From a virus, in the IMG/VR virus record IMGVR_UViG_3300009008_001503, positions 1-40,857 of that record: DNA of 40,857 nucleotides; one strand, 5' to 3'. Numbering within the stretch: position 1 is the stretch's first letter; each line of letters begins with the position of its first letter. The notes under the pieces were generated by a model. It was not told where the DNA came from, made no database searches, and saw only the letters and a program-made list of their open reading frames with translations. A program made the position numbers and the translations under genes. Below, in pieces: positions 1,911 through 39,425 of this stretch.

Positions 1911-2539
1911 GACGCTGTTAACAGGTCCCAGTTTTCTTTTGGGCGGACAGCTTCAGAACCGTCCGCACAGAGTGGGCACATATGGGGAGGCCAAATCTGG
2001 AGTTGTTTATCAAGTAAGGACACGATAGGTAGGCCATTAATATGTCGGTGACCACTTCGGTTGAGTATAACTGCTACCATCGTTACCTTGGCTCCTTGTA
2101 CCTTGATAGCCTGGATGGTCTTCCGTGTGGTGTCACCGGTGGTTAATACATCCTCGACTACCAACACTTGTTGGCCCGGTTCCAAGGTAAACCTCTTAAG
2201 GACCATTTGCTTCTCGCCGTCATCATCCCTCATGGGTTCGGTAAAGCCTGTATACACGTCTCCACCAATAGACCCTCCCAGGATTAAAGCCATTTGGTGG
2301 GCTAACGTTACTACTCCCATGGCAGACCCGATTACCCAATGAAAGTCATGGGAGGCCATAAGGTCCTTCCAGTGGAGACAAACATCCAAAACCAAGGTCG
2401 GGTGTTTGATTACCTGGCTGGCGTTGAAGAAGCCATCACTGTGGTTGCCAGATGTAAGCAGGGCGTGAGGCCCATTGCCGTCATGGATCCAGAGGGCGCC
2501 TCCAGCCCCTAGTTCTTGTTCCCAATCAATGTCGTTCAT
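1907..2539 (-). CDS. pyrE: orotate phosphoribosyltransferase-like protein
   Basis: A 210-residue type I phosphoribosyltransferase. The PRPP loop VLVVEDVLTTGDTT is at residues 125-138, and the substrate-side motif LTSGNHSDGFFN is near residue 28, as in OPRT, which adds ribose-5-phosphate from PRPP to orotate. The C-terminal CPLCADGSEAVRPKENW also occurs in bacterial and phage OPRT-like proteins. GGGAGG lies eight bases before the ATG, and the promoter-like motif TGTAAATA begins about 30 bases upstream. It heads an operon ending with the HPRT gene. Several phage OPRT-like proteins have uncertain substrates, so orotate is an inference. The plus-strand nuclease gene lies immediately upstream in divergent orientation. 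Confidence 0.88.
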   Translation of the reverse strand: MNDIDWEQELGAGGALWIHDGNGPHALLTSGNHSDGFFNASQVIKHPTLVLDVCLHWKDLMASHDFHWVIGSAMGVVTLAHQMALILGGSIGGDVYTGFTEPMRDDDGEKQMVLKRFTLEPGQQVLVVEDVLTTGDTTRKTIQAIKVQGAKVTMVAVILNRSGHRHINGLPIVSLLDKQLQIWPPHMCPLCADGSEAVRPKENWDLLTAS

Positions 2540-2563
2540 TTTGTTTACCTCCCTATTGAAGTC

Positions 2564-2571
2564 TATTTACA
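2564..2571 (-). promoter_or_regulatory. TGTAAATA promoter-like motif before the OPRT gene
   Basis: Minus-strand TGTAAATA, 25 bases before the start codon at 2539, in AT-rich DNA. It is an exact copy of the motif found before several other minus-strand transcription units here, and resembles the T4 late promoter TATAAATA. Confidence 0.5.
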
Positions 2572-2614
2572 TACTAATTTAATAGATAACCTTTTTATAC
2601 ACGGGAGAAATAGG

Positions 2615-3814
2615 ATGCGCGGTGTTAAGTATACTACAGAAACCTACAAAAAGGCGATCAAACAGCTACCACATGGAAATAAAATTAAAGTCCTCGGATC
2701 CTACGTCAAAGGAAGAATTAAAATCCTACACCAATGCCTTGAGTGTAACCATAAATGGTACACCAAACCAGGCGTTATTTTAAGAGGTGCTGGTTGTCCT
2801 GCTTGCAACACACGAAATCGAACATGGACCCACGAGGACTACTTGGAACAGTTAAAAGCTAAGCACCAAGGTTACTTAATTTGCTTGGAACAATACCGAG
2901 GAGCCAATCATTTTATATTACACCGATGCCTTAGGTGTAGTACCGATTGGGAGACTTCTCCCTACCGAGCACTGAGAGCTACCAATTGTCCCATTTGTGC
3001 GGACCGTCATCGTGGAACCAAGGTACCATTAACTACCTACGAGAAAAAGCTAAGAAGGATCCATGGATCAACTATCCAAGTGTTAGAGTATAATCCGGGT
3101 TCTCGACAAAAATCTCGGTACAAATGCCATCTATGTCATCACCGATGGGCGGCATCAACTCAATCAGTAACTTCTGGATGTGGTTGCCCCTCATGTGCCC
3201 AATCACGGAAAAGAAAACACCCCCAACAATACCTACGGGAAGTAAGACACATGCATGGTAATACGATTAAAGTTCTCGAAAAATATGTTGGGGCGAACTC
3301 AGCCATCCGACACCAATGTGTTAAAAACCACACATGGAAAGCTGAACCAAGCATGGTTATTCGTGGTTCAGGGTGCCCGGTATGTGCACGACAAAAGGCT
3401 TTCCAACCTAAGGATTTTAAACTCGGAGACCGCTTTGTGCAAGTCCAAGGGTATGAACCACAAGCCATCCTTTGGATTTTGGCCAATACAGAAATACCTG
3501 CCGAAAATATAAAAACGAGCGCCAATGATAATCTACCTGTGGTTCCCTACCATTTGGGTGGACGTAATAGGAAATACTATCCAGACCTTTGGATTCCTAT
3601 ACGTAACATATTAGTGGAAGTCAAATCCTTATGGACCTTCTGTGGTAGAAGGTCCAGATTGGAAATGACTCAAGCCAAAGCGAAAGCCTGCTTAAAAGCT
3701 GGATTCCGATTTAAACTCCTTGTGATGGACCCTGCTGGTAGCCGACTCCCGTTACCACATAACTGGTACCACATGGAACCTAAACGTGTCCGGGATATAC
3801 TGCACAACTGTTAG
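2615..3814 (+). CDS. homing-endonuclease-like protein: four zinc-ribbon repeats plus PD-(D/E)XK nuclease
   Basis: A 399-residue plus-strand gene among minus-strand genes. Four repeats of about 65 residues each hold a CxxC...CPxC zinc ribbon; the CPxC parts read GCPAC, NCPIC, GCPSC and GCPVC. The fourth lacks the second Cys of its first pair (CVKNH). Each is preceded by a helix and an I-x-V-L-E-type strand, as in the DUF723-type repeats of phage-encoded nucleases. The C-terminal domain has YPDLW...LVEVKS, a PD-(D/E)XK active site. Repeated DNA-binding fingers plus a nuclease domain and lone opposite orientation fit a free-standing homing endonuclease. The start at 2615 has GGGAG seven bases upstream; the frame is open further 5' but without a ribosome site. 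The 3' end overlaps queD tail to tail by 35 bases. Its target site is unknown. Confidence 0.8.
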   Translation: MRGVKYTTETYKKAIKQLPHGNKIKVLGSYVKGRIKILHQCLECNHKWYTKPGVILRGAGCPACNTRNRTWTHEDYLEQLKAKHQGYLICLEQYRGANHFILHRCLRCSTDWETSPYRALRATNCPICADRHRGTKVPLTTYEKKLRRIHGSTIQVLEYNPGSRQKSRYKCHLCHHRWAASTQSVTSGCGCPSCAQSRKRKHPQQYLREVRHMHGNTIKVLEKYVGANSAIRHQCVKNHTWKAEPSMVIRGSGCPVCARQKAFQPKDFKLGDRFVQVQGYEPQAILWILANTEIPAENIKTSANDNLPVVPYHLGGRNRKYYPDLWIPIRNILVEVKSLWTFCGRRSRLEMTQAKAKACLKAGFRFKLLVMDPAGSRLPLPHNWYHMEPKRVRDILHNC

Positions 3815-9150: not shown

Positions 9151-9158
9151 TATTTACA
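9151..9158 (-). promoter_or_regulatory. TGTAAATA promoter-like motif before 8890-9120
   Basis: Minus-strand TGTAAATA, 30 bases before the ATG at 9120. Its TAA is the stop codon of the upstream SbcC-like gene. It is an exact copy of the recurring motif. Confidence 0.5.
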
Positions 9159-11622
9159 TAACAGGGATAAACCGCATCTTTTGGCCTTTCTTTTGGGCCA
9201 CAAACTCCCGGGCCTGTGGGTACTCCTCGTCAGTTGGTGTAACCACAATGATGTGAGGGATCACCCTGTTGAGGGCGGGTAAGAATTCCTGGATAAACAG
9301 GTCCCGTCCACCTTCATCCATGTTAGCCGTCATCTCATCAAGCACGAGAATGTTGGTACGCTTGTTGGCCGGAATTAGGGGCAGGACACCAAGCAAAAGC
9401 AGCATATTAAACGCCCGCCCTTCCGCACCACTGAGGGACCTCACATCAGCCGTCACCGTTTTACTACCTTCTACCCTATGAAACAACACGTCAAACTTGT
9501 TCGGTCCTATCTGGAACTCGAACTCCGTTGGTTCATGGAACAGGTGTCGAGCATAGACGTTCATATTCTGTTGTACTGTTTCTGCCAACTGTTGGACCAC
9601 CAGGGACTTTAGGCCCTTAGGGGAATACGCATCAGACAGCATCTTGAGAACAGGTAGGTCCTTGAGACGATCCTTCAATTTTTGGCCCTCCGCCTCCAGG
9701 TCCGCCAGCCTCTTGGTATCCTGTTCATACTGCTCTATCTTGACCTGTAAACGTGGGGTTCTCCGTTGAAGGTCCATCAATCGGGTTTTCTGTTGGTCAA
9801 CCTTTTGTTCCAGATGCTGCCGTTTAGCCCGCAATTTGGACACGTCTCGTGTACCGAACTGGTCCCACAGGGCCACCAACTTGGGTACCACGTAAACCAA
9901 AGACTCCAGCTGGCCGTACATCCAGCGTAGGTCCCTTAATTCGTTCTCGATTTTAGAGGGATCCGACGCTTGTTCACCCGTTCTCTTGGGTACACGTAAT
10001 GCCTGTTCCTGGTTGTCAAGGTCCCACCATGCCCTCCATTTGTCGAACTCTCTGGAGCGGTCCTTTCGTTTATCTTTCTGACTGCATAGTTGATTATAAT
10101 GGTCTCTCAGTTCCTGCTGTTGTTCCTTGAGGTGGTCATAGGTAATAACCTCTGGTACCTCTTGTAGCTTCTGTACCAGAGATTCCCTACGTTTACGCTT
10201 GGCACGTAACTGGCTCAAACGTTTGCGAAGGGTATCATGGATGGATTCCGCTTGAACCTTGGACAAGTCCTGTTGACACACCGTACACTGGCCACCCTCA
10301 GCGTGTTCCATGTGTTGGGACATTAAGTGAAGGGAACGTTTAAAGTCGCGTTCCTGCCCCCGTAGGTCCCCTAGGACCCCAGATAACTTCTGTAGGGTCC
10401 CTTGGACCCCTAACTCCTCTAGGTCCAGCCCTAGGTCCTTACACGGACCTGTTACTCGACCCAACGCCTCCCCGTATTGCTTGCGTTCTCTGCGGGCGGA
10501 TTTAATCCGGCGACCTACCTTCTCATACTGGGCTCGCGTTTCTCGTAACTTGGATCGGAGGTCAGATCGTTGTTGCCGGTCCTGTTCGATCTGTTGTTGC
10601 CCATCTTTTGGAGGCTTTGATAAGCCCTTTTTCTGGCCCGTAATATGCTTGAGCTGGTCTCTGTAGGCTTTCGTAGATCGGCGCCAATGCCTCCACTCTT
10701 GGTGTGCTTCATGCTTTTGTTCTAACCCGGTTATCTTGGCCCCCAGAGAATCCCGGAACTCCAATAACTCTGAGGCGGTCATGTCAAATATAGTGATTGG
10801 GCGGTCTATTGAGGCAAGGTATTCAGCAGTCAAACCAGATAATTTATCCAGTGCCTCTGTTTGGTGGGACACTGCCAGCCGGAGGTCTGCGATAGCCTTG
10901 TGCCTATGGTCCTGTCCTTTGACCAAGGACTTCAGTTCCTTTTGGTACCTGTCATGCCGGACCCTCAGTTGGGTAATATCAATATCCTGTACCCTACTGG
11001 TTAGCTCAACCACGTCTTTTTGTCGGCTTTCATACACCGCTTGTTCCGCCTGGAGTTTCCGGATTTGCTTCTGTACCCTACCCTTCAACTGGTCAAAATC
11101 ATCTAAAACAAACAGGTCACTGAAGAAGGACATACGCTGAGCAACTGTACCCATGTGGAGGACAAACGGTCTGCGACTGTCAAGGTAGACCAGGGACCAG
11201 AACTGCTCCTCATTAATAGGGACGATCTGCTGGACCATTTCCTCGGCTATAGTCGTTGTGCGTGGTTCTAGGTTGTCTTTGTTTTTGTGTATCCGGTACT
11301 TAAGGGACGCTCCTCTCTGACCTTTCTCCAGCTCATAGTTGTCACCGTCGATGGTCAAATCGAGTTGGATCCGGCTACCTTTACGGTGTATGTCTTTCTT
11401 GGCCCTGGATTTGTTTTGCCAGATGATGGGGGAACTGGAATACAGCAGGTTGGGGATGGTTGAAACGAGGAGGGATTTACCACTACCGTTGGACTTCTTG
11501 AGTCCGGCTGGGACATTAAAGTTTTGGCCTCGGATTACCGTAAGACCACGATGGTCTAGGTCAAGGGAGGCTTCCCGGTAATAAACAATATTGGCCAAAC
11601 GCAAACGAGTGAACTGTATCAA
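9154..11622 (-). CDS. sbcC: Rad50/SbcC-like ATPase (recombination endonuclease subunit, gp46-like)
   Basis: An 822-residue SMC-type ATPase. Walker A is SNGSGKS (residues 44-50). Two long coiled-coil arms flank a zinc hook CTVC near residue 447. The ABC signature LSGAEGRAFN is near 729 and Walker B ILVLDEMTANMD near 759. It partners the Mre11/SbcD nuclease (15020-16042) to open and resect DNA ends; in T4 the pair is gp46/gp47 and feeds UvsX. The start is a TTG with GGGAGAG nine bases upstream; the N-terminus (IQFTRLRLANIVYYREASLDL) is the expected first strand of the family, so nothing is missing. Three small membrane protein genes and dnaX separate it from its partner. Confidence 0.93.
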   Translation of the reverse strand: MIQFTRLRLANIVYYREASLDLDHRGLTVIRGQNFNVPAGLKKSNGSGKSLLVSTIPNLLYSSSPIIWQNKSRAKKDIHRKGSRIQLDLTIDGDNYELEKGQRGASLKYRIHKNKDNLEPRTTTIAEEMVQQIVPINEEQFWSLVYLDSRRPFVLHMGTVAQRMSFFSDLFVLDDFDQLKGRVQKQIRKLQAEQAVYESRQKDVVELTSRVQDIDITQLRVRHDRYQKELKSLVKGQDHRHKAIADLRLAVSHQTEALDKLSGLTAEYLASIDRPITIFDMTASELLEFRDSLGAKITGLEQKHEAHQEWRHWRRSTKAYRDQLKHITGQKKGLSKPPKDGQQQIEQDRQQRSDLRSKLRETRAQYEKVGRRIKSARRERKQYGEALGRVTGPCKDLGLDLEELGVQGTLQKLSGVLGDLRGQERDFKRSLHLMSQHMEHAEGGQCTVCQQDLSKVQAESIHDTLRKRLSQLRAKRKRRESLVQKLQEVPEVITYDHLKEQQQELRDHYNQLCSQKDKRKDRSREFDKWRAWWDLDNQEQALRVPKRTGEQASDPSKIENELRDLRWMYGQLESLVYVVPKLVALWDQFGTRDVSKLRAKRQHLEQKVDQQKTRLMDLQRRTPRLQVKIEQYEQDTKRLADLEAEGQKLKDRLKDLPVLKMLSDAYSPKGLKSLVVQQLAETVQQNMNVYARHLFHEPTEFEFQIGPNKFDVLFHRVEGSKTVTADVRSLSGAEGRAFNMLLLLGVLPLIPANKRTNILVLDEMTANMDEGGRDLFIQEFLPALNRVIPHIIVVTPTDEEYPQAREFVAQKKGQKMRFIPVM

Positions 11623-11768: not shown

Positions 11769-12047
11769 CTATCTAGTTGGAGTCCCGTCAGGATTGGTTG
11801 GTTTGTTAGGTACCAGGTCTTCAGGTTGTGCCCAACGCAGTACCGTCTCCTTTGCACAATCATAATGGGTGCCATGGAGAACGCAACCGTTCAACACCTT
11901 CCGGGGGAACAGGTAATGCCCCTTCCAGGAGAAGTTGACAACAGGGTCGGAAGCCCAACCAAATACCATACCGGCGATGAATATGGCGATGGGTATCAGG
12001 GATTTGAGCTCCATCAGGGTACGGATAACGTGGCGTCTGTCTTTCAT
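11769..12047 (-). CDS. small membrane-anchored protein
   Basis: A 92-residue protein: a basic N-terminus (MKDRRHVIRTLMEL), one membrane segment (LIPIAIFIAGMVFGWA), and a polar domain of about 60 residues probably outside the inner membrane, with two cysteines (NGCVLHGTHYDC) that could pair. The ATG overlaps the stop of the upstream CxxCH protein gene (ATGA). It resembles both its neighbours around the membrane helix, suggesting a small tandem family. Function unknown; a role in membrane anchoring or host-cell takeover is possible but unsupported. Confidence 0.6.
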   Translation of the reverse strand: MKDRRHVIRTLMELKSLIPIAIFIAGMVFGWASDPVVNFSWKGHYLFPRKVLNGCVLHGTHYDCAKETVLRWAQPEDLVPNKPTNPDGTPTR

Positions 12048-12304
12048 GGCTTTTCCCCGATTACATGCGGGTCACCCTGTTTACCATGACACTCAAGGCA
12101 CTCTTCATGTTCAAGTTGTAGTTGTCGGTGCATTTTTACTAGAGGTACGTGAGTGTCTTTATGCAGGACATTAGGAGACTTGTGACCAAAGACATGTTCG
12201 TGGGAACCCCAGCCAAGAATAAGACCGCACAGGAACACAATTACTGGGAACACGTATAGTAATTCCGCTTGCATGTAACGGAAGCTCTTTAACATCCATT
12301 TCAT
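12044..12304 (-). CDS. small membrane-anchored protein with a CxxCH motif
   Basis: An 86-residue protein: a basic N-terminus, one membrane helix (LLYVFPVIVFLCGLILGW), then a histidine-rich tail that contains HEECLECHGKQGDPH. CxxCH is the covalent heme-binding motif of c-type cytochromes, and the membrane topology would place it in the periplasm, where heme is attached. One motif with several nearby His residues could bind a heme or another metal. Start TAAATG directly follows dnaX-C, with AGGAG seven bases upstream. The heme reading is an inference from a short motif; a zinc site is an alternative. Confidence 0.6.
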   Translation of the reverse strand: MKWMLKSFRYMQAELLYVFPVIVFLCGLILGWGSHEHVFGHKSPNVLHKDTHVPLVKMHRQLQLEHEECLECHGKQGDPHVIGEKP

Positions 12305-13222
12305 TTACTTACTCCTTGAACGTTGTCGGTGGATACCTGACATACGCCCAAGCCGAGCAACCAGCATTGACCTTTCAGGTGTTACAAAGGTCATCATCTC
12401 AGCCCGAGCATCCAATATTAAATTATGGACACGTAGTAATAGACCGAGGTTCCTCTTGATGTCGAACTCCCGCTTTAACATCGCCCTGTGCAGGTTCTTC
12501 CGGGATACACTGGCAAACACCGCTGGGTGTTGACCCCTGCTATCAAAATGGAGCGTGGCCCTGTCCACCATGTATTGGTTGAGGTCCATTAATTTTTGCA
12601 TGAGGGGCACGAACTCCGTAGTCTTGGCTATCTCTCTGCACACTATGCGGGTACTGTTCGTGTACAGACCTACCAAGATGGCGCTTGCAATGTTATCCAA
12701 AACACTGTCAACCGTTTGGATGGCTTGGTCTTCGATAATCTTGGACAGAGCTTCAGGTTCAACATCTGTGCCGAGCCCTGCAATGAAGGAACTGGTATTT
12801 TCCAAGATACCAATGGCGTCACGCATCTGACCACCTGACAGATTCGCCATGGCCTTAAAGTGAGGTTCCTCGAGGCCAGTAACACGTTCTCGTTTGGCAA
12901 TCTGTTGGAGGCGTCGAATAATGGACTGGTGCCCTAAAGGTTTCACAGGTAAATGGTGACAACGCCCCTTGATGGCAGCCGCCAACTTCTCTGGGTTTGT
13001 GGTGCCAAGAATCCATAGGACGTGACTTGGAGGATCCTCCAGCGGTTTCAAGAGGGCTTGCTCTGCCTGAGGCGTTAACTGGTGGCAATTTGATACCAGG
13101 ACGCTATTTGTGGAGCCTTTTGGTCGAATGAAAAAATTATGGTTCTTAGCGACACCGATATCATATACGCGTTGACACGGATTACCCAACCGCGTGACTT
13201 TTTTGACTTTAACAGTTTTCAT
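12305..13222 (-). CDS. dnaX: DnaX-like clamp loader, C-terminal half, fused to a C-intein
   Basis: A 305-residue protein: residues 1-45 are a split C-intein and 46-305 the C-extein. The extein begins CHQLTPQAEQALLKPLEDPP and continues with the AAA+ sensor 1 region (WILGTTNPEKL), an arginine-finger-type GRCHHLPVKPL and a sensor 2-like GGQMRDAIG, then a helical collar domain. After trans-splicing with the upstream half, it gives a 384-residue clamp loader ATPase that opens the sliding clamp for the DNA polymerase. It has its own ATG with AGAGGA four bases upstream, so it is translated independently. It follows its partner gene after 226 bases that hold an endonuclease relic. Confidence 0.92.
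   Translation of the reverse strand: MKTVKVKKVTRLGNPCQRVYDIGVAKNHNFFIRPKGSTNSVLVSNCHQLTPQAEQALLKPLEDPPSHVLWILGTTNPEKLAAAIKGRCHHLPVKPLGHQSIIRRLQQIAKRERVTGLEEPHFKAMANLSGGQMRDAIGILENTSSFIAGLGTDVEPEALSKIIEDQAIQTVDSVLDNIASAILVGLYTNSTRIVCREIAKTTEFVPLMQKLMDLNQYMVDRATLHFDSRGQHPAVFASVSRKNLHRAMLKREFDIKRNLGLLLRVHNLILDARAEMMTFVTPERSMLVARLGRMSGIHRQRSRSK
13088..13222 (-). other. split C-intein (45 residues)
   Basis: Residues 1-45 of the downstream dnaX gene. The block F-like segment is RVYDIGVAKNHNFFI and block G is SVLVSN followed by Cys46, the first extein residue and the nucleophile for transesterification. The terminal Asn45 needed for cyclisation is present. The residue before it is Ser, not the usual His. 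Fusion of the two intein ends predicts the seamless extein joint ILDE-CHQL. Confidence 0.9.
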
Positions 13223-13247
13223 AAATTCCTCTCACTAATTTAGATAA

Positions 13248-13481
13248 GTTACATCGGAGAATCATTACCACGGGTCCCCTTTCAAATTCAAGCCTGACCA
13301 TAAGTGCCACCCATTTAACCGCAAAGTAACTGCCAAAACACTATACCGCAAAACTATGGACAGGTTATTACGGCTAGTCTTGGCAGGTTACAATGTGGTA
13401 TACATTTGGGAAACCGATTTTAAACAAGGCCTTACTTACAGCGGGAGTCTAATCGCGAACCAAAAGTTCCTCCCCCTCTAA
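13248..13481 (+). pseudogene. relic of a Vsr-like homing endonuclease between the intein halves
   Basis: A plus-strand frame of 77 codons (open from the TAA at 13245 to the TAA at 13479) in the gap between the split dnaX genes. Its translation holds the C-terminal half of a Vsr-like nuclease: ENHYHGSPFKFKPD, then HPFNRK, then LYRKTMDR and AGYNVVYIWETDF. This is the typical order of free-standing Vsr-like homing endonucleases (YWHG-x-P, N-x-K, LY-x-x-T, GY-x-V-x-x-IWE). The N-terminal half with the first catalytic residues is missing, no good start exists (an ATG at 13356 would give 41 residues), and the 3' end runs 33 bases into the N-intein gene antisense. It is therefore a decayed remnant. 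The family assignment rests on motif order and was not searched. Confidence 0.75.
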
Positions 13482-14129
13482 AAGCTCTTGGGCTTCTACC
13501 ATACGTCCACGCGTGACAGACCACCACTTATGTGTATCCGTGCAGTCTTGATGGGATCCATCCTCAAGATCGACACGTACCATTTGATCGGGCTTGGCTT
13601 CCTTTGGTGTCCTGCTAATTACAGGTTGGGCCTCTATCCTACCTACCTTTGTATCATAGGATAACACCTCTGGGTATCTATCAGGATTTTGACAAATATC
13701 CTCGATGGTGGCCCACTGATCAGGGGCCACCTCTACCTCCGCGTCTGGAGGGAAACATTCGTCAAGGATAAAGACACGGAGGCGATGGGTGGACATAAAT
13801 CTACTGCGGGCGATTAAGTTACGAACGTCCTCGATCTTCCGGCTGTCTGCCATGTTGAACTCTTCGATATCAGGATGGCGGCCTTCCTGTAAGGCGACGC
13901 AGGAATCACATTTACCACACCCTGTCATCTCTGTACAGTTCAGGTATTTGGCGATCAACCGACCGATGGTGGTTTTACCACATCCACTTGGACCTGTCAG
14001 AAGGTAGGCGCTGGGAATCTCACCCTTTTCAATGTTACCCCGAAACGTGGTAACAATAGACTTTTGACCTGCGACTTGGCTTAACTTTTGGGGCCTGTAC
14101 TTCTGGGCCCATCCTTTTACTGGTGGCAT
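13449..14129 (-). CDS. dnaX: DnaX-like clamp loader, N-terminal half, fused to an N-intein
   Basis: A 226-residue protein: residues 1-124 are the N-extein and 125-226 a split N-intein. The extein has the DnaX start WAQKYRPQKLSQVAGQ, Walker A GPSGCGKT (46-53), a four-cysteine zinc module (Cys65, 71, 74, 77), and RVFILDE, the first part of Walker B, where it stops. The missing second part is in the gene at 12305-13222. The product is inactive alone and needs protein trans-splicing. TAGGAGCCGAGAT precedes the ATG, and a TGTAAATT motif lies 37 bases upstream. The neighbours (J-domain protein, Mre11) place it in the replication and recombination block. Confidence 0.93.
   Translation of the reverse strand: MPPVKGWAQKYRPQKLSQVAGQKSIVTTFRGNIEKGEIPSAYLLTGPSGCGKTTIGRLIAKYLNCTEMTGCGKCDSCVALQEGRHPDIEEFNMADSRKIEDVRNLIARSRFMSTHRLRVFILDECFPPDAEVEVAPDQWATIEDICQNPDRYPEVLSYDTKVGRIEAQPVISRTPKEAKPDQMVRVDLEDGSHQDCTDTHKWWSVTRGRMVEAQELLEGEELLVRD
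13452..13757 (-). other. split N-intein (102 residues)
   Basis: Residues 125-226 of the upstream dnaX gene. Block A starts at Cys125 (CFPPDAEVEV), the splice nucleophile. Block B is GSHQDCTDTHKWWSV, with the T-x-x-H pair that activates the first peptide bond. The end, ELLEGEELLVRD, resembles the natural C-terminus of other split N-inteins. No endonuclease domain is fused; the size fits naturally split phage inteins of the gp41/NrdJ type. Confidence 0.92.
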
Positions 14130-14165
14130 ATCTCGGCTCCTACGGCTTTGTGTTCATATACCTTT

Positions 14166-14173
14166 AATTTACA
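14166..14173 (-). promoter_or_regulatory. TGTAAATT promoter-like motif before dnaX-N
   Basis: Minus-strand TGTAAATT, 37 bases before the dnaX-N start. One base differs from the recurring TGTAAATA, and its TAA is the stop of the J-domain gene. Confidence 0.4.
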
Positions 14174-15023
14174 GTTTCCAGAATTGTCCCCAGTTAACTG
14201 TGGTACCTTCATGACCAAAGGTGACGTTCACTTTTTCAGGATTCCTCATCCGCTCTATATCCCCTTGGATGCGTTCCATCTGTTTTTGGAACGTTTGGTA
14301 CTTGGCTATAAGTTGGGCACGTGTGTTTTCAATGACGTGTGCTCTCCCTACAGGGGTTTGCCACAACTTCCAGTTGTTGTGCCCCTCGGAATTCTCTAGG
14401 GTATTTATCTCCGCCCGCAATTCTTGGATACGGCCTAGTAAGATGCCGTGCCTTTTTCGGAGTCTGGCCACCAACCTGTCATAGGCTGGACGGTCCGGAA
14501 GGTTCACCTCTGTACCTTTTTTCTTACCCCGCCCTAGTTTTACCAGCCCATCCCATATATCCAACAGAGCTTTGACGTTGTTGTTCTCGTAGGCCTCTGA
14601 CGCCATCTTAAAAAATTCGTGGAGCCAGGTTTTACCCGGCGTTTTATCAGGGTGGCACAACAGGCTAATGCGGCGGAACAACCTTTTGGCTTCTGAGCTT
14701 GGTTTAACCTTTTGCTTTTCCTGCCGCTTTTCAAAATTGGTTTCGAAGTTTGGCCCCCGTGGTTTGTTAGGTTCCTCTTGGTTGTGTCGCTCCTGTAATT
14801 TACGATGTTGGTCCAAGAGATCACGGCAGGCGGTTTCAAGGTGAGTTATCATCTCATCCTCTTCTGACAGCTCTGCTTGCAACCAACCATCAAGATCGTC
14901 CATCATCCCTTGAAACTCGGCTCTCTTGGTCTCCAGTTGCTGGCACTCAATCTCAAGTACCTCTACCTCATCTTGGAGTTCCATGTGTTGGACAGTAAAT
15001 CCAACGGCAGTATTGGCAGTCAT
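14169..15023 (-). CDS. coiled-coil protein with a J-domain
   Basis: A 284-residue protein. Residues 15-80 form an acidic coiled coil (VEVLEIECQQLETKRAEF and on), and residues 111-160 a J-domain core: EAKRLFRRISLLCHPDKTPGK with the HPD tripeptide at 124-126, then HEFFKMASEAYENNN. Residues 185-265 are a second coiled coil. J-domains stimulate Hsp70 (DnaK) ATPase, so this may recruit host DnaK to the phage replication machinery, as lambda P and DnaJ do for initiation. The start overlaps the Mre11 gene stop (ATGA), coupling the two. No glycine/phenylalanine or zinc region of full DnaJ is present. Confidence 0.8.
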   Translation of the reverse strand: MTANTAVGFTVQHMELQDEVEVLEIECQQLETKRAEFQGMMDDLDGWLQAELSEEDEMITHLETACRDLLDQHRKLQERHNQEEPNKPRGPNFETNFEKRQEKQKVKPSSEAKRLFRRISLLCHPDKTPGKTWLHEFFKMASEAYENNNVKALLDIWDGLVKLGRGKKKGTEVNLPDRPAYDRLVARLRKRHGILLGRIQELRAEINTLENSEGHNNWKLWQTPVGRAHVIENTRAQLIAKYQTFQKQMERIQGDIERMRNPEKVNVTFGHEGTTVNWGQFWKL

Positions 15024-16042
15024 GTCGCGTCCTTTAAGAAGCTTTCTATTAATTGTTGTCCCCGACGAATTTGGGACCGTGTAGCTCCCTTATCCTTCAG
15101 GAAAACATCCAGCCCTGTCAGGAGATCCCATTGCGGACCATCTACGGCCGTATCCTCAAGGGATAAGAGTTCTTGCCGATGTTTGTACCCAACAACGTTG
15201 TAGACGTTTGGATGGGCTGTCAGGAAGCCAGGAGGTAATACTACACCACTCTTCAACCATAGCTTGTATCGGTGTAATGGATTGGACTCAATTTTATCTA
15301 GGTCTGCCTCTACCTCGATGGACAAGTTAACTAGGCGAAACGCTGGTTCGTTCTGGATCCACGTTATGTCAGCGTCAATCTGGTTATTACGTGTATCCAG
15401 AATAAAGTGCATCCATCCCTTGGGTAAGGGTTCCCCAAAGTTCATCTGGTAGAGCGTGCCGGGGTACCACACATTACCCGTCTTTTGCTTGAGATGGAGG
15501 TGCCCCATTAACCAGATGTCTTGGTCTCTCGTAGGACGCCAACCCTTGGTAATCCGTTGGCCATTATCTCGGCGGGCACCTGTTGTTTCTAAGTGCCCAA
15601 TATTAACCGTGGGTCCCAAGGAAAAAGGAGGACAGTCATAGGGAAAAGGAAGAAAGTTAATGACCGTTCCATCCAACTGGATACGGTTAGGACGGTCATA
15701 AATGTAGATGGTACGAAATTTCTCCATCCTGCATAATTGTACAAGTGGTTGTAGGCTGTGGAGGTCTTTGTTCCGAACGTCATGGTTACCCAGGATAACA
15801 TGGATGTCTAACGTTCCATCGTACTCGTGGAGGACCTCAAGGAACGCCATTTGGGCTTCGTATGAAAGCCTAGTATTGTGGGAAATGTCCCCACCAAGGA
15901 TAACAAAGTTGAGACCGAGTTCAACCGCATACCTCAGTGGTTTGCGGAACTCTGCCATTTGTAGGTCCAAATGATTGTCAGGGAACAACTTACGGAGGCC
16001 ATCCAGATGGAGGTCTCCTATGAACACACCTTCTACCGACAT
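15020..16042 (-). CDS. sbcD: Mre11/SbcD-like nuclease (gp47-like)
   Basis: A 340-residue metallophosphoesterase with all motifs: GDLHLDG (Asp10, His12), GGDISHN (51-55), GNHDVR (85-90) and GHLHLKQ near residue 178. Mre11/SbcD proteins bind two manganese ions and cut DNA ends and hairpins together with the Rad50/SbcC ATPase (9154-11622). The length is close to T4 gp47. ATAGGAGTACCTC precedes the ATG. Its 3' end overlaps the J-domain gene. Together with the UvsX-like recombinase and the single-stranded DNA-binding protein it forms a T4-like recombination set. Confidence 0.93.
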   Translation of the reverse strand: MSVEGVFIGDLHLDGLRKLFPDNHLDLQMAEFRKPLRYAVELGLNFVILGGDISHNTRLSYEAQMAFLEVLHEYDGTLDIHVILGNHDVRNKDLHSLQPLVQLCRMEKFRTIYIYDRPNRIQLDGTVINFLPFPYDCPPFSLGPTVNIGHLETTGARRDNGQRITKGWRPTRDQDIWLMGHLHLKQKTGNVWYPGTLYQMNFGEPLPKGWMHFILDTRNNQIDADITWIQNEPAFRLVNLSIEVEADLDKIESNPLHRYKLWLKSGVVLPPGFLTAHPNVYNVVGYKHRQELLSLEDTAVDGPQWDLLTGLDVFLKDKGATRSQIRRGQQLIESFLKDAT

Positions 16043-36371: not shown

Positions 36372-39300
36372 TTACGACGGGATGTTTTCCATCTTCTGGA
36401 CCATTACCTTGACCTTACGTGATTCGGTCAATGTGATGGTGATGTTGTCGGCGTTATCAATACGAACCAGCACACCGTGGTTGTAATACAGGAGGTCTTC
36501 GTCCTGCACCAACACGGTGATCTGTGGGAAACTGGTGTTCAAGTTGTGGGCCAAGCTGTAGGAAGTCGCCGCCGAAGTCGCCTCATAGGTGTACTTCTGA
36601 GCGTTCACGTCCGCGCGAATAGCCGTGTCAGCATTGGTACGGTTGGTAACCTCGGTGTCGAGACCGGTATCCAGTGCTGTCAAGTTTGCATTGACAGTGT
36701 TGGCGGCCAAGACGTAAGAACCGTCAGAAAGATTGGCACCGACCTCAGTGTCCAGAGCTTCCAAAGCCCCTTGAACAGTCGTGGCAGAACCCATCCAGTT
36801 GGAACCATTCAACGCTGTGTTGTTGAAGGTACCGTCAGTGTTGATCATCGCACCGCCAGCGGTCTCGATGTTGTCAACTTCCGTCTGCAAAGCACTGTTG
36901 TCACCAGCCTGTTGACTGGCCAGAGCTGCAAGAGCCACATCCAACGCGGTGATGTTCTGCTGGACTTTGTTGGCGGCCAGGATGTAGTCGCCGTCACCGA
37001 CGTTGGCACCGATTGCGGTATCAAGAGCCGTGATGTTGGCCTGGACTTTGTTCGAAGCCAAAACATAGTTGCCGTTGGCAAGATTGGCACCGATTGCAGT
37101 ATCCAAAGCCGCCAGATTGGCCGCCCGGGTGTTGGAGGCTGCGGTGTAGTTTCCATCCGCATCCGAACCCAATTCCGCGTCCAGAGCCGCGATATTGGCC
37201 TGTACAGTGTTGGCGGCCAGGATGTAGTTACCATCGGAAACGTTGGCGCCGATCGCAGCATCCAAGTCGATGAGGTCAGACGCTACATCAGCGTTACCGT
37301 TGATGTAGTTCTTGCCGGTGTGTGCCACGTAGTTGCCACTGGCATTCATCATGGCGCCCATAGCAGCTTGGGTGGCGTCCAACTCAGCCTGAAGGGCCGT
37401 GTCAGCGTCGCCACGGTCGGTGACTTCCTGAGCCAAGCCATCCGTGTTGGTCTTGACCTGGGTATCGAGGTCCGTGAGGTCCTCAGCCACGTTACTGTTA
37501 CCACCAAGATAATTGGAACCAATGTGAGCGACATAATCTCCATTGGCGTCCATCATGGCACCCATGGCCGCTTGAGTATCATCCAGTTCGGCTTGGATGG
37601 CTGTGTCAGCGTTACCTCGATCCGTAATCTCTTGAGCGAGTCCGCTTTCGTTGGTGTTGATCAGGTCGATAACAGCCTGAGCAACCCGGGCACCGCTGGC
37701 GGAGGTGGAGAGGGTGGCGCCGTGGGTAGCGTCTGTGGTGTCAATCTTGATCGCCAGTTCAGCGCCGGCATCGTCGGATTGAGCTGTGCCGTCAACTGTA
37801 CAGAAAACACCACCAGTGGCACGAACATCAACACCGACTTCATCATTGGGCCGCATTTCAATACCGGCACCAAAGTTGATGTACAGTTCGTTACCGTTCT
37901 TGCTGAGGCCGTTACCCGCGATGATCTGACCGGCACCCGAAGACTGGGTGAAGGTAATGTCATCGGTTCCAACGTCATGGTTTTGTTGAGCCAAGGAACC
38001 ACTGGAGGTCACACTGTAACCGTTGTTTCCGTTGAGCGTACCTTCGGAAACAAAGACATGGGCGCCGGGTGGTACTTCATTATCGGGGGTACCGTCAAAA
38101 TCATCCGCACGCGTCAACGCAGCAGAACCTGTGGTAACGGTACCGACGATGTAAAGGCCATTCTCGATCGGGTCCGTCTGACCGAACAGCAGAACACGAT
38201 CATCAGCCACACCAGTCACACCGTCTTGCTCCACGGTGAAAGCACCCAGATCAGCAACGTTACTGGATACCGCATAACGCACGCTGTACTTGGCGGTAAT
38301 ACCAGTCACCAAGTTGTCCACGTAAATCTTGGTGGCGGCGTCTTGGGCATCACTGGGGTTTGCCATGTTACTGATGGTCTGAGAACCCATTGCAATACCA
38401 CCGGACATGGTACCACCGGCGAGAGGCAGCAACAGAGCGTCTTGGGCAGCCCGGTCAATCAACTCTTGAGCCAGGCCGTCGGTAACGGTCTTGAGCTGGC
38501 TGTCCAAATCCGTCAGGTCTTCGGCAACGTCAGAGTTGGAACCGAGATAATTGGAACCAACATGGGCAACATAATCCCCATTGGCGTCCATCATGGCACC
38601 CATGGAAGCCTGGGTGGCATCCAGTTCTGCTTGGATGTTATCGTCGGCAGCACCACGGTCGATGATTTCCTGGGCCAGACCGTCAGCGTTAACTTTGATC
38701 TGGGTGTCGAGTGCCAACGCGGCAGAAGCCACGTCGGTGGAGGCATCCATGTAGTTGCCGCCATCGAGGGCCGTGGTATTGAAGGTACCGTCAACGTTGA
38801 TCATCGTACCCAAAGCATTCTGGGTCACATCCAACTCAGCTTGCAGGTCGGACAGACCTTGACCACCGCTGGAAGCATTGTCGATAATATCCTGTTGGGT
38901 TTGATCGATGGCGTCGATGATTTGGTCCAAACTGGACTTCAGACTGACGGTCGAAACGGTCAGGTTACCGTTGGAACCGGCATGACCCTGATAACCGACT
39001 TTGTTGGTACCATTGGTGGCCGTGGTGGCCGCCAAGATCGCGCGCCAATCAACCTCTTCTTGACGGTCGGCGTCGATTGCCAAGGTGATGGTGTCCAAGG
39101 TGGAATCCAGTTGGGCGGCAGACGTACTGAACTGACCGTTGGAACCAACCTGTCCACTGTAACCCACCAGGGGGCCACCAGTTGCGGTGGCAGCAAGCAG
39201 GGCAACCCAAGTGTCAAAGTCGGCCTTGGAATGTACCTGCTCAGTGATAACACCTCCGCCGCCGTCAAGGCCACTGAACATAAACTCCTTGAGGGTTGTA

Positions 39301-39425
39301 TTGAACCACCACCGACCGGCTACGGTTGGGGTAGGGTTTGACGCAAAACTTTCGACCACGGCATTCTTGATGTGCGAAGCATCCGCCATCTCCAAGCCAT
39401 GCATCTTTTTGTATTCAACAGACAT
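36372..39425 (-). CDS. tail-fibre-like repetitive protein
   Basis: A 1017-residue protein. The N-terminal part (MSVEYKKMHGLEMADAS, then PTVAGRWWFNTTLKEFMF) matches a common phage fibre/virion start. A beta domain follows near 340-480 (YAVSSNVADLGAFTVEQDGV, then PPGAHVFVSEGTLNGNNGY). The rest is coiled-coil-like repeats: DANGDYVAHIGSNYLG, AAMGAMMDANG, DLDTQVKTNTDGLAQE, and ALDTAIGANLANGNYVLA repeated many times. The C-terminal 60 residues form the small beta domain shared with the 964-residue protein. CAAATAGGAGAG precedes the ATG. It is likely a trimeric fibre or tail-associated protein. Confidence 0.75.
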   Translation of the reverse strand: MSVEYKKMHGLEMADASHIKNAVVESFASNPTPTVAGRWWFNTTLKEFMFSGLDGGGGVITEQVHSKADFDTWVALLAATATGGPLVGYSGQVGSNGQFSTSAAQLDSTLDTITLAIDADRQEEVDWRAILAATTATNGTNKVGYQGHAGSNGNLTVSTVSLKSSLDQIIDAIDQTQQDIIDNASSGGQGLSDLQAELDVTQNALGTMINVDGTFNTTALDGGNYMDASTDVASAALALDTQIKVNADGLAQEIIDRGAADDNIQAELDATQASMGAMMDANGDYVAHVGSNYLGSNSDVAEDLTDLDSQLKTVTDGLAQELIDRAAQDALLLPLAGGTMSGGIAMGSQTISNMANPSDAQDAATKIYVDNLVTGITAKYSVRYAVSSNVADLGAFTVEQDGVTGVADDRVLLFGQTDPIENGLYIVGTVTTGSAALTRADDFDGTPDNEVPPGAHVFVSEGTLNGNNGYSVTSSGSLAQQNHDVGTDDITFTQSSGAGQIIAGNGLSKNGNELYINFGAGIEMRPNDEVGVDVRATGGVFCTVDGTAQSDDAGAELAIKIDTTDATHGATLSTSASGARVAQAVIDLINTNESGLAQEITDRGNADTAIQAELDDTQAAMGAMMDANGDYVAHIGSNYLGGNSNVAEDLTDLDTQVKTNTDGLAQEVTDRGDADTALQAELDATQAAMGAMMNASGNYVAHTGKNYINGNADVASDLIDLDAAIGANVSDGNYILAANTVQANIAALDAELGSDADGNYTAASNTRAANLAALDTAIGANLANGNYVLASNKVQANITALDTAIGANVGDGDYILAANKVQQNITALDVALAALASQQAGDNSALQTEVDNIETAGGAMINTDGTFNNTALNGSNWMGSATTVQGALEALDTEVGANLSDGSYVLAANTVNANLTALDTGLDTEVTNRTNADTAIRADVNAQKYTYEATSAATSYSLAHNLNTSFPQITVLVQDEDLLYYNHGVLVRIDNADNITITLTESRKVKVMVQKMENIPS

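What the first reader, a model, noticed from the sequence alone, without database searches (positions are those of the whole stretch)
12305..14129. Clamp loader gene split by a trans-splicing intein at its Walker B motif
The dnaX-like gene is in two separately translated pieces. The first ends in a 102-residue N-intein starting at Cys125 directly after ILDE; the second starts with a 45-residue C-intein ending SN, followed by CHQL. Joining gives ILDECHQL, the normal DnaX Walker B, and a 384-residue protein. Each half has its own start and ribosome site. Split inteins in phage genes such as gp41, NrdJ and IMPDH are known; I do not recall one at this DnaX site. The phage would depend on splicing for replication.
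Basis: partly seen in the sequence, partly recalled or inferred. Interest (0 to 1): 0.88.

Follow-up and report, generated by a model that had tools for sequence, protein, structure and literature searches.

The report
Phage clamp loader with split intein
A virus of bacteria appears to make an essential DNA-copying protein as two separate pieces that stitch themselves together, and the gap between the two genes still holds a decayed remnant of the DNA-cutting enzyme that probably once helped this element spread.

Summary
Two ORFs encode DnaX residues 1-124 plus a 102-aa N-intein (13449-14129, minus) and a 45-aa C-intein plus the remaining 260 residues (12305-13222, minus). Joined, they align without a gap at the joint to the intact DnaX of Vibrio phage GR7B. 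The arrangement recurs in a diverged phage contig (IMGVR_UViG_3300025288_000012; intein halves 51-53% identical), so it is conserved rather than an accident. The site itself is known: contiguous inteins sit there in many cyanobacterial DnaX genes and in other phages. In the best tree the split intein is not closest to those; it groups (UFBoot 99) with a split intein at the DE|CH motif of a helicase in Vibrio phage GR11A, which has an intact dnaX in the same SbcD-dnaX-SbcC order. The 226-bp gap holds an antisense fossil of the ORF between the two GR11A helicase halves (E 2.6e-11). Best reading: a trans-splicing relic of a "fractured gene" cassette that entered dnaX and then lost its endonuclease. 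The same phage has a second split-intein gene, polA, with an endonuclease-like ORF in place. Splicing itself, and the direction of transfer between genes, are inferred, not shown.

The parts
13758..14129 (-). dnaX-N, N-extein: DnaX residues 1-124 (Walker A GPSGCGKT, four cysteines of the zinc site, Walker B ending ILDE; motif names recalled)
13452..13757 (-). N-intein, 102 aa, from Cys1 to the C-terminus EELLVRD; block A CFPPDAEVEV, block B CTDTH; stop codon 13449-13451
13088..13222 (-). C-intein, 45 aa, own ATG; block F VYDIGVAKNHNFF, block G VLVSN
12308..13087 (-). C-extein: 260 residues starting CHQL (sensor 1 TTNPEK, GRC arginine-finger motif, lid; motif names recalled); stop codon 12305-12307
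13223..13448 (.). 226-bp gap between the two half-genes, stops in all three sense frames
13266..13451 (+). Fossil of the endonuclease-like ORF, antisense to dnaX: matches residues 205-265 of the 271-aa ORF between the GR11A helicase halves, 40% over 62 aligned positions; its frame stays open to a stop at 13479-13481, overlapping the 3' end of dnaX-N by 33 nt
13226..13232 (-). Shine-Dalgarno-like AGAGGAA before dnaX-C
   Evidence: by eye
14137..14141 (-). Shine-Dalgarno-like AGGAG before dnaX-N
   Evidence: by eye
9154..11622 (-). SbcC-like gene; homologues lie next to dnaX in GR7B, GR11A and G005 (26-28% identical)
15020..16042 (-). SbcD-like phosphoesterase; homologues lie upstream of dnaX in GR7B and GR11A (41-42% identical)

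Best explanation
The two genes encode the halves of a phage DnaX-type clamp-loader ATPase, each fused to one part of a naturally split class-1 intein. After separate translation the two intein parts bind, fold into one splicing domain and join ILDE to CHQL. This leaves a 384-residue clamp loader and two discarded intein fragments. Because Walker A and the Walker B acids are in one half and sensor 1 and the arginine finger in the other, neither half should work alone. By origin it is a relic of a 'fractured gene' cassette (split intein plus an antisense endonuclease gene between the halves) whose nearest form found sits at the DE|CH motif of a helicase in Vibrio phage GR11A. In dnaX the endonuclease has decayed to a fossil of about 62 codons in this phage and left no detected trace in the 62-bp gap of the other phage. 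Shown: gene structure, intein motifs, conservation in two phages, intein kinship in the best tree, fossil. Inferred: that splicing occurs, that the product is the active form, that the intervening ORF family is a homing endonuclease, and how and in which direction the cassette moved.
For: Gene structure and families. Joined extein a single TIGR02397 match at 231.2 bits, and gapless at the joint against GR7B DnaX. Intact orthologues with LDE-CHML in the syntenic phages GR7B and GR11A. A contiguous intein at the same bond in LR745208. Second split dnaX in contig G005 (N-intein 51%, C-intein 53%, C-extein 34% identical; gap 62 bp). Profile of six joined inteins against PDB: NrdJ-1 4.5e-16, Spirulina DnaX mini-intein 6.1e-14, gp41-1 3.2e-9. 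Best matches of both intein parts in the annotated phage collection are split parts in the GR11A helicase (3e-10 and 3e-7). Tree of 52 inteins: window + G005 99, plus GR11A helicase 99. Endonuclease fossil, 55.1 bits, E 2.6e-11 against the whole window, against at most 30.0 bits from 500 shuffled queries; none of the three other intervening ORFs tested matches the gap in the search of the whole window; same antisense orientation and a similar overlap with the upstream half (33 nt here, 35 nt in GR11A).
Against: No experiment. The penultimate residue is Ser instead of the usual His (also in G005 and LR745208), which could slow the last step. AU tests reject grouping all DnaX inteins (p 0.041) or joining the window pair to the cyanobacterial ones (p 0.036), but the more cautious SH test rejects none of the four alternatives (p 0.075 to 0.31), and AU does not reject joining the pair to the LR745208 intein (p 0.148) or to the viral endonuclease-bearing contiguous inteins (p 0.143) (constrained trees came from a fast search). 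The 30 bp around the bond are not more alike between window dnaX and GR11A helicase (19/30) than between other DE|CH sites. The product is below the TIGR02397 curated cut-off (231.2 against 250). The structure model of the N-half is unusable (mean pLDDT 46, two sequences).
Confidence: 0.86

Rival explanations
1. The two polypeptides assemble without splicing: the intein parts are dead or only act as a docking clasp, as in split phage genes whose halves work as a complex (Aeromonas phage Aeh1 NrdA, phage 25 gp43A/43B).
For: Such working unspliced split phage enzymes are described in PMC2988022 (passages seen). The penultimate His of block G is Ser here.
Against: The catalytic Cys1, block B Thr and His, block F Asp and His, terminal Asn and +1 Cys are kept in both diverged split dnaX genes, and the intein halves are as conserved as or more conserved than the exteins (0.51 and 0.53 against 0.50 and 0.34). 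The split falls in the middle of the ATPase core.
Confidence: 0.08
2. Pseudogene or assembly error: a stop or frameshift in an ordinary contiguous gene.
For: None found.
Against: The locus is the same in the window, the 168.9-kb contig and the 70.6-kb contig, with no difference in the split gene. The same split is in a diverged phage. In the window each half has its own start and Shine-Dalgarno-like site, and there is no reading frame across the gap.
Confidence: 0.01
3. About origin only: the split arose in place, by breaking a contiguous DnaX intein already at this bond, and the likeness to the GR11A helicase intein reflects transfer from dnaX to helicase or convergence.
For: The LR745208 intein shares the SN ending. 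AU does not exclude kinship with LR745208 (p 0.148), and SH excludes none of the alternatives.
Against: The best tree places the window pair with the GR11A helicase split intein (99) and with other split phage inteins, away from DnaX contiguous inteins. The gap holds a fossil of the GR11A-type ORF in the GR11A orientation, which suggests the unit came as a split intein plus endonuclease. Direction between the two genes stays open.
Confidence: 0.25

Closest known systems
Split inteins of phage 'fractured genes' (gp41, NrdA, NrdJ, IMPDH; Dassa et al. 2009, recalled, paper not held)
   Same: Intein cut between blocks B and F, halves fused to host-gene halves, free-standing endonuclease gene between them (recalled); best PDB match is NrdJ-1
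   Different: Host gene is a DnaX clamp loader; the endonuclease is reduced to a fossil in this phage and not detected in the second one
Split helicase intein of Vibrio phage GR11A (QJT71044 + QJT71042)
   Same: Closest intein outside dnaX among those compared; same DE|CH bond type; related endonuclease-like ORF in the same orientation between the halves
   Different: Sits in a helicase, intervening ORF full length; GR11A's own dnaX is uninterrupted
DnaX inteins of cyanobacteria (Ssp DnaX, Spl DnaX mini-intein, PDB 7cfv)
   Same: Same DnaX bond in the cyanobacterial loci found, Cys1 and +1 Cys, homologous splicing fold
   Different: Contiguous, many long enough to hold an endonuclease; usually HN rather than SN end; a separate branch of the tree
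DnaX mini-intein of uncultured phage LR745208.1
   Same: Same bond, SN ending
   Different: Not split; 24% (N part) and 46% (C part) identical to the window's intein

Membership tests
Natural split intein (class 1) | Two ORFs, each an extein piece fused to one intein part, cut between blocks B and F | tested here: met
Natural split intein (class 1) | Cys1, block B TxxH, block F Asp/His, C-terminal Asn, +1 nucleophile (Cys) | tested here: met
   conserved in G005 (block definitions recalled)
Natural split intein (class 1) | Penultimate His of block G (usual, not universal) | tested here: not met
   Ser in window, G005 and LR745208; treated as variation, not as a defining feature
Natural split intein (class 1) | Homology to inteins of solved structure | tested here: met
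   (profile of six joined inteins incl. the window's); the window ORFs alone match Pfam's intein model only below cut-off
Natural split intein (class 1) | Trans-splicing activity | not testable with these tools
   needs coexpression
Fractured gene with free-standing endonuclease | Intact endonuclease ORF between the halves | tested here: not met
   only a fossil lacking the DGF...FHGD part; hence filed as a relic, not as a full member
DnaX insertion site intein | Inserted between DE and CH of DnaX Walker B | tested here: met
DnaX intein lineage of cyanobacteria | Groups with cyanobacterial DnaX inteins | tested here: not met
   (AU p 0.036; SH p 0.089)
DnaX (gamma/tau) clamp loader | Full-length match to TIGR02397 at its curated cut-off (250 bits) | tested here: not met
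   231.2 bits, positions 4-288 of 355: a DnaX homologue, phage clamp-loader group phrog_5846, not the bacterial equivalog
DnaX (gamma/tau) clamp loader | Walker A, Walker B, sensor 1, arginine finger after joining | tested here: met
   read by eye; motif definitions recalled

The most novel reading that the evidence does not exclude
A split intein together with its antisense endonuclease forms one mobile unit that can jump between unrelated ATPase genes because they share the DE|CH Walker-B/motif-II sequence. The window's dnaX is such a landing site caught after the endonuclease died, with the split intein then kept through phage divergence. The same phage would build both its clamp loader and its DNA polymerase by two trans-splicing reactions that must not cross-react.
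Probability: 0.45. Interest if true: 0.78.

Novelty: new variant of a known kind. Interest (0 to 1): 0.64.

Why it matters
It adds the clamp loader to the genes known to be cut by natural split inteins, at least as far as the papers searched here show. It also catches an intermediate stage: a split gene with a decayed endonuclease-like ORF between the halves, with a full-length form (GR11A helicase) and a form without detected trace (G005) also found. Split inteins are working tools for protein ligation, so a conserved pair with an SN end and a diverged split partner in the same phage (PolA) is a natural test of orthogonality. It also gives a concrete case for asking how inteins reach new genes.

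Tried and rejected
Frameshift, read-through or assembly error: rejected (different frames, stops in all sense frames of the gap, same split in a second phage). Splitting of the DnaX contiguous intein in place: disfavoured, not excluded (AU p 0.148 for LR745208; SH rejects no alternative). Ectopic homing helped by DNA likeness at the site: tested, 19/30 identical bases, no more than other DE|CH sites, so no support. Endonuclease remnant in the G005 gap: none found (62 bp). dN/dS of window against G005: dS could not be computed (saturated) in three of four segments, so only codon-position differences are usable. Promoter and terminator scan of the region: numbers within chance. Rfam and tRNA on the window: nothing. 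Structure prediction of the N-half: mean pLDDT 46, discarded, no fold search made. Supports first read from a re-rooted tree (and my note) were shifted along the path to the window; one search gives the right ones, so the PolA grouping is 77, not 99. Tree members were my choice: 19 of the 83 bacterial contiguous inteins and all 13 viral ones (two of these, L015 and L024, near-identical), plus 20 others. My pattern scan missed G005, so it undercounts. The printed rows for L075-L086 were cut, but classified every match. Of the 31 loci I read the ORFs of L203, L204, L205 and L213 and knew three; the other 24 were not read.

Full report
What is there. On the minus strand the window holds dnaX-N (13449-14129, 226 aa) and dnaX-C (12305-13222, 305 aa), 226 bp apart and in different frames. 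dnaX-N carries DnaX residues 1-124 up to ILDE, then 102 residues starting CFPPDAEVEV. dnaX-C starts with 45 residues ending VLVSN, then CHQL and the rest of the protein. DnaX profiles match the extein parts and meet at the joint. The Pfam intein model matches both intein parts only weakly, below its cut-off (E 0.1 and 0.064). The joined 384-residue product gives one TIGR02397 match of 231.2 bits, against 123.0 and 91.9 for the halves, though below that model's cut-off of 250. It aligns with the 389-residue DnaX of Vibrio phage GR7B over nearly its whole length, 36% identical, with no gap at the joint.

It is not an error. The window equals the first 40,857 bases (reversed) of a 168.9-kb IMG/VR contig (G002), and a 70.6-kb contig with another dataset number differs at 8 of 11,403 compared bases, none in the split gene. 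I count these as one phage. A second phage (G005, contig 3300025288_000012, 190.9 kb) has the same split: dnaX-N, a 62-bp gap, dnaX-C and then an SbcC homologue (27% identical to the window's). Identities to the window are 0.50 (N-extein), 0.51 (N-intein), 0.53 (C-intein) and 0.34 (C-extein). Differences pile up at third codon positions, and dS could not be computed in three of the four segments. This suggests that the split form and both intein parts have been kept under selection through long divergence.

Intact and contiguous relatives. GR7B and GR11A, with the same SbcD-dnaX-SbcC order (SbcD 41-42% and SbcC 26-28% identical to the window's), have uninterrupted dnaX reading LLDECHML and FLDECHML. 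Among 12 loci found with an alignment of phage DnaX N-parts, 2 are the window phage, 9 are uninterrupted (DEVH or DEAH) and 1 has a contiguous intein. An uncultured 485-kb phage, LR745208.1, has a contiguous mini-intein at exactly this bond, also ending SN.

The site is old news; the split form is what is new there. Of the 22, 13 are contiguous DnaX inteins, 1 has Walker A without a clear DEC, 5 are cut by the end of the stretch, 1 is spurious and 2 are the window phage. Of the 118, 83 are contiguous, 13 cut, 21 spurious, and 1 was flagged as split but has only four residues of open frame before the match, so I take it as chance. By record title most of the bacterial ones are cyanobacterial, which I did not tally; lengths run from 129 to 452 aa. 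The pattern missed G005, so absence from this scan is weak evidence. A second pattern gave 5 stretches: two from the window phage, one from G005, one spurious and one more contiguous intein. Two searches with alignments of the two split dnaX genes gave 31 and 19 loci, of which 3 each are the two known phages; I read the ORFs of 4 of the other 28 and of all 16 others and saw no further split dnaX.

Kin of the intein. In annotated phages the best match of the N-intein is in Vibrio phage GR11A (33.7%, E 3e-10), and so is that of the C-intein (48.9%, E 3e-7). There they are the two parts of a split intein in a helicase, at VDE|C...HN|CHK, with a 271-aa ORF on the opposite strand between the halves. 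Yersinia phage fHe-Yen9-02 has the same arrangement at the same DE|CH bond, and Dickeya phage JA33 has one at another helicase bond. GR7B, whose helicase is 78% identical over the C-part, has no intein at motif II and reads DEIH, so the element is patchy. G002's own homologue of that helicase is uninterrupted and reads DEVH. A tree of 52 inteins (143 columns) joins window and G005 (UFBoot 99), then the GR11A helicase intein (99), then split PolA inteins (77), then the Yersinia and Dickeya ones (83), away from DnaX contiguous inteins. AU rejects a single DnaX group (0.041) and a window-cyanobacteria group (0.036), but not window with LR745208 (0.148) or with the viral endonuclease-bearing contiguous inteins (0.143); SH rejects none of the four (0.075 to 0.31).

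The fossil. The 226-bp gap carries, antisense to dnaX, a match to residues 205-265 of the GR11A intervening ORF: 40% identical over 62 positions, 55.1 bits, E 2.6e-11 against the whole window. Of 500 shuffled queries 495 had some hit at E up to 10, the best with 30.0 bits. The same ORF also matches, more weakly (32.7 bits), the separate endonuclease-like ORF at 2516-3814; the Yersinia, Dickeya and G002-polA intervening ORFs match that ORF too, but not the gap. The fossil's frame runs open to 13481 and overlaps the 3' end of dnaX-N by 33 nt; in GR11A the overlap is 35 nt. The GR11A ORF matches endonuclease families only in part (phrog_559, 3.3e-9) and no Pfam family. Its DGF...FHGDxWHGNP motif resembles the Vsr-like EDxHD endonucleases, a resemblance recalled and not tested; a fragmentary relative lies in Salicola phage SCTP-2. 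The fossil begins after the DGF and FHGD part, so it is unlikely to be an active enzyme.

Second split gene. G002 also has a split family-A DNA polymerase (85462-89944), with a 381-aa ORF antisense between the halves (DUF7487, 6.6e-28; phrog 'homing endonuclease', 2e-11). G005 has a split polA at a different bond, with a 174-bp gap. A profile built from six inteins, these included for G002, found in the nine pieces of G002 these two N-parts and two C-parts and nothing else above threshold.

How it works, most likely. The parts pair, Cys1 attacks the ILDE carbonyl, the chain moves to the +1 Cys, the terminal Asn cyclises, and a peptide bond closes ILDE-CHQL. This is standard class-1 chemistry, known from other inteins and inferred here. 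A profile of six such inteins, the window's among them, finds split and DnaX inteins of solved structure. The Ser before the last Asn is a departure; it is shared by G005 and LR745208.

What is known. Fractured genes with split inteins and endonucleases between the halves were described by Dassa et al. 2009 (recalled; not held; the citation was seen in passages of PMC7090010, PMC11766414 and PMC12350094). Passages of PMC3443213 describe the Ssp DnaX intein as a natural intein used there in artificially split form, and a table passage of PMC11766414 lists such splits with Cys1 and +1 Cys. Passages of PMC5050341 describe intein insertion at the Walker B motif of phage terminases. Searches of the paper library for split intein with DnaX, DnaX intein, intein with clamp loader and phage, fractured genes with split inteins (20 of 71 papers listed), split intein with homing endonuclease, phage and helicase (20 of 21 listed), GR11A, intein with DnaX and Walker B, and natural split intein with DnaX listed no paper that, by title, abstract start or the passages read, reports a natural split DnaX intein. 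The library lacks most subscription journals.

Verdict. The finding is a new variant of a known kind: a DnaX split intein, conserved in two phages, that looks like the relic of a mobile cassette shared with a helicase.

Noticed in passing
IMGVR_UViG_3300007511_000003 (G002) 85462-89944; L166:5462-9944: Second split-intein gene in the same phage: family-A DNA polymerase cut (by eye) in the exonuclease part, with a 381-aa endonuclease-like ORF (DUF7487) antisense between the halves.
   Followed up: partly
L176:3666-7217 (G005): polA of the second split-dnaX phage is also split by an intein, at a different bond, with a 174-bp gap and so no room for a full endonuclease ORF.
   Followed up: partly
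L176:91-3198 (G005): Helicase-like gene (SNF2-like by eye) with a contiguous intein in the same phage.
   Followed up: no
window 2516-3814 (+): Free-standing endonuclease-like ORF (DUF4379 zinc fingers plus DUF7487) between an ORF that looks like a phosphoribosyltransferase (by eye) and a 6-pyruvoyl-tetrahydropterin-synthase gene.
   Followed up: partly
window 12044-12304 (-): 86-aa protein with a hydrophobic stretch and a CxxCH (haem c-type) motif, by eye, next to dnaX-C; no Pfam match.
   Followed up: no
window 36477-39341 (+) opposite 36372-39425 (-): A 954-aa open frame lies antisense to the 1017-aa gene that matches a head-decoration PHROG; no Pfam match to the antisense frame. Repeats of 79% identity at 37426-37599 and 38464-38637.
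   Followed up: no
L152:3045-5384 (Vibrio phage GR11A) and L248:494-3367 (GR7B): Both helicases carry a contiguous intein at Walker A (SGK|C..HN|T, by eye); only GR11A has the split one at motif II as well.
   Followed up: partly
L238 (IMGVR_UViG_3300028048_001497): A contiguous mini-intein at the DE|CH motif of another phage helicase-like gene, ending VSN|CHHI.
   Followed up: partly
window 14169-15023 (-): DnaJ-domain-like protein (Pfam DnaJ 2.6e-05, 24.7 bits, under the 27.8 cut-off) between SbcD and dnaX-N.
   Followed up: no
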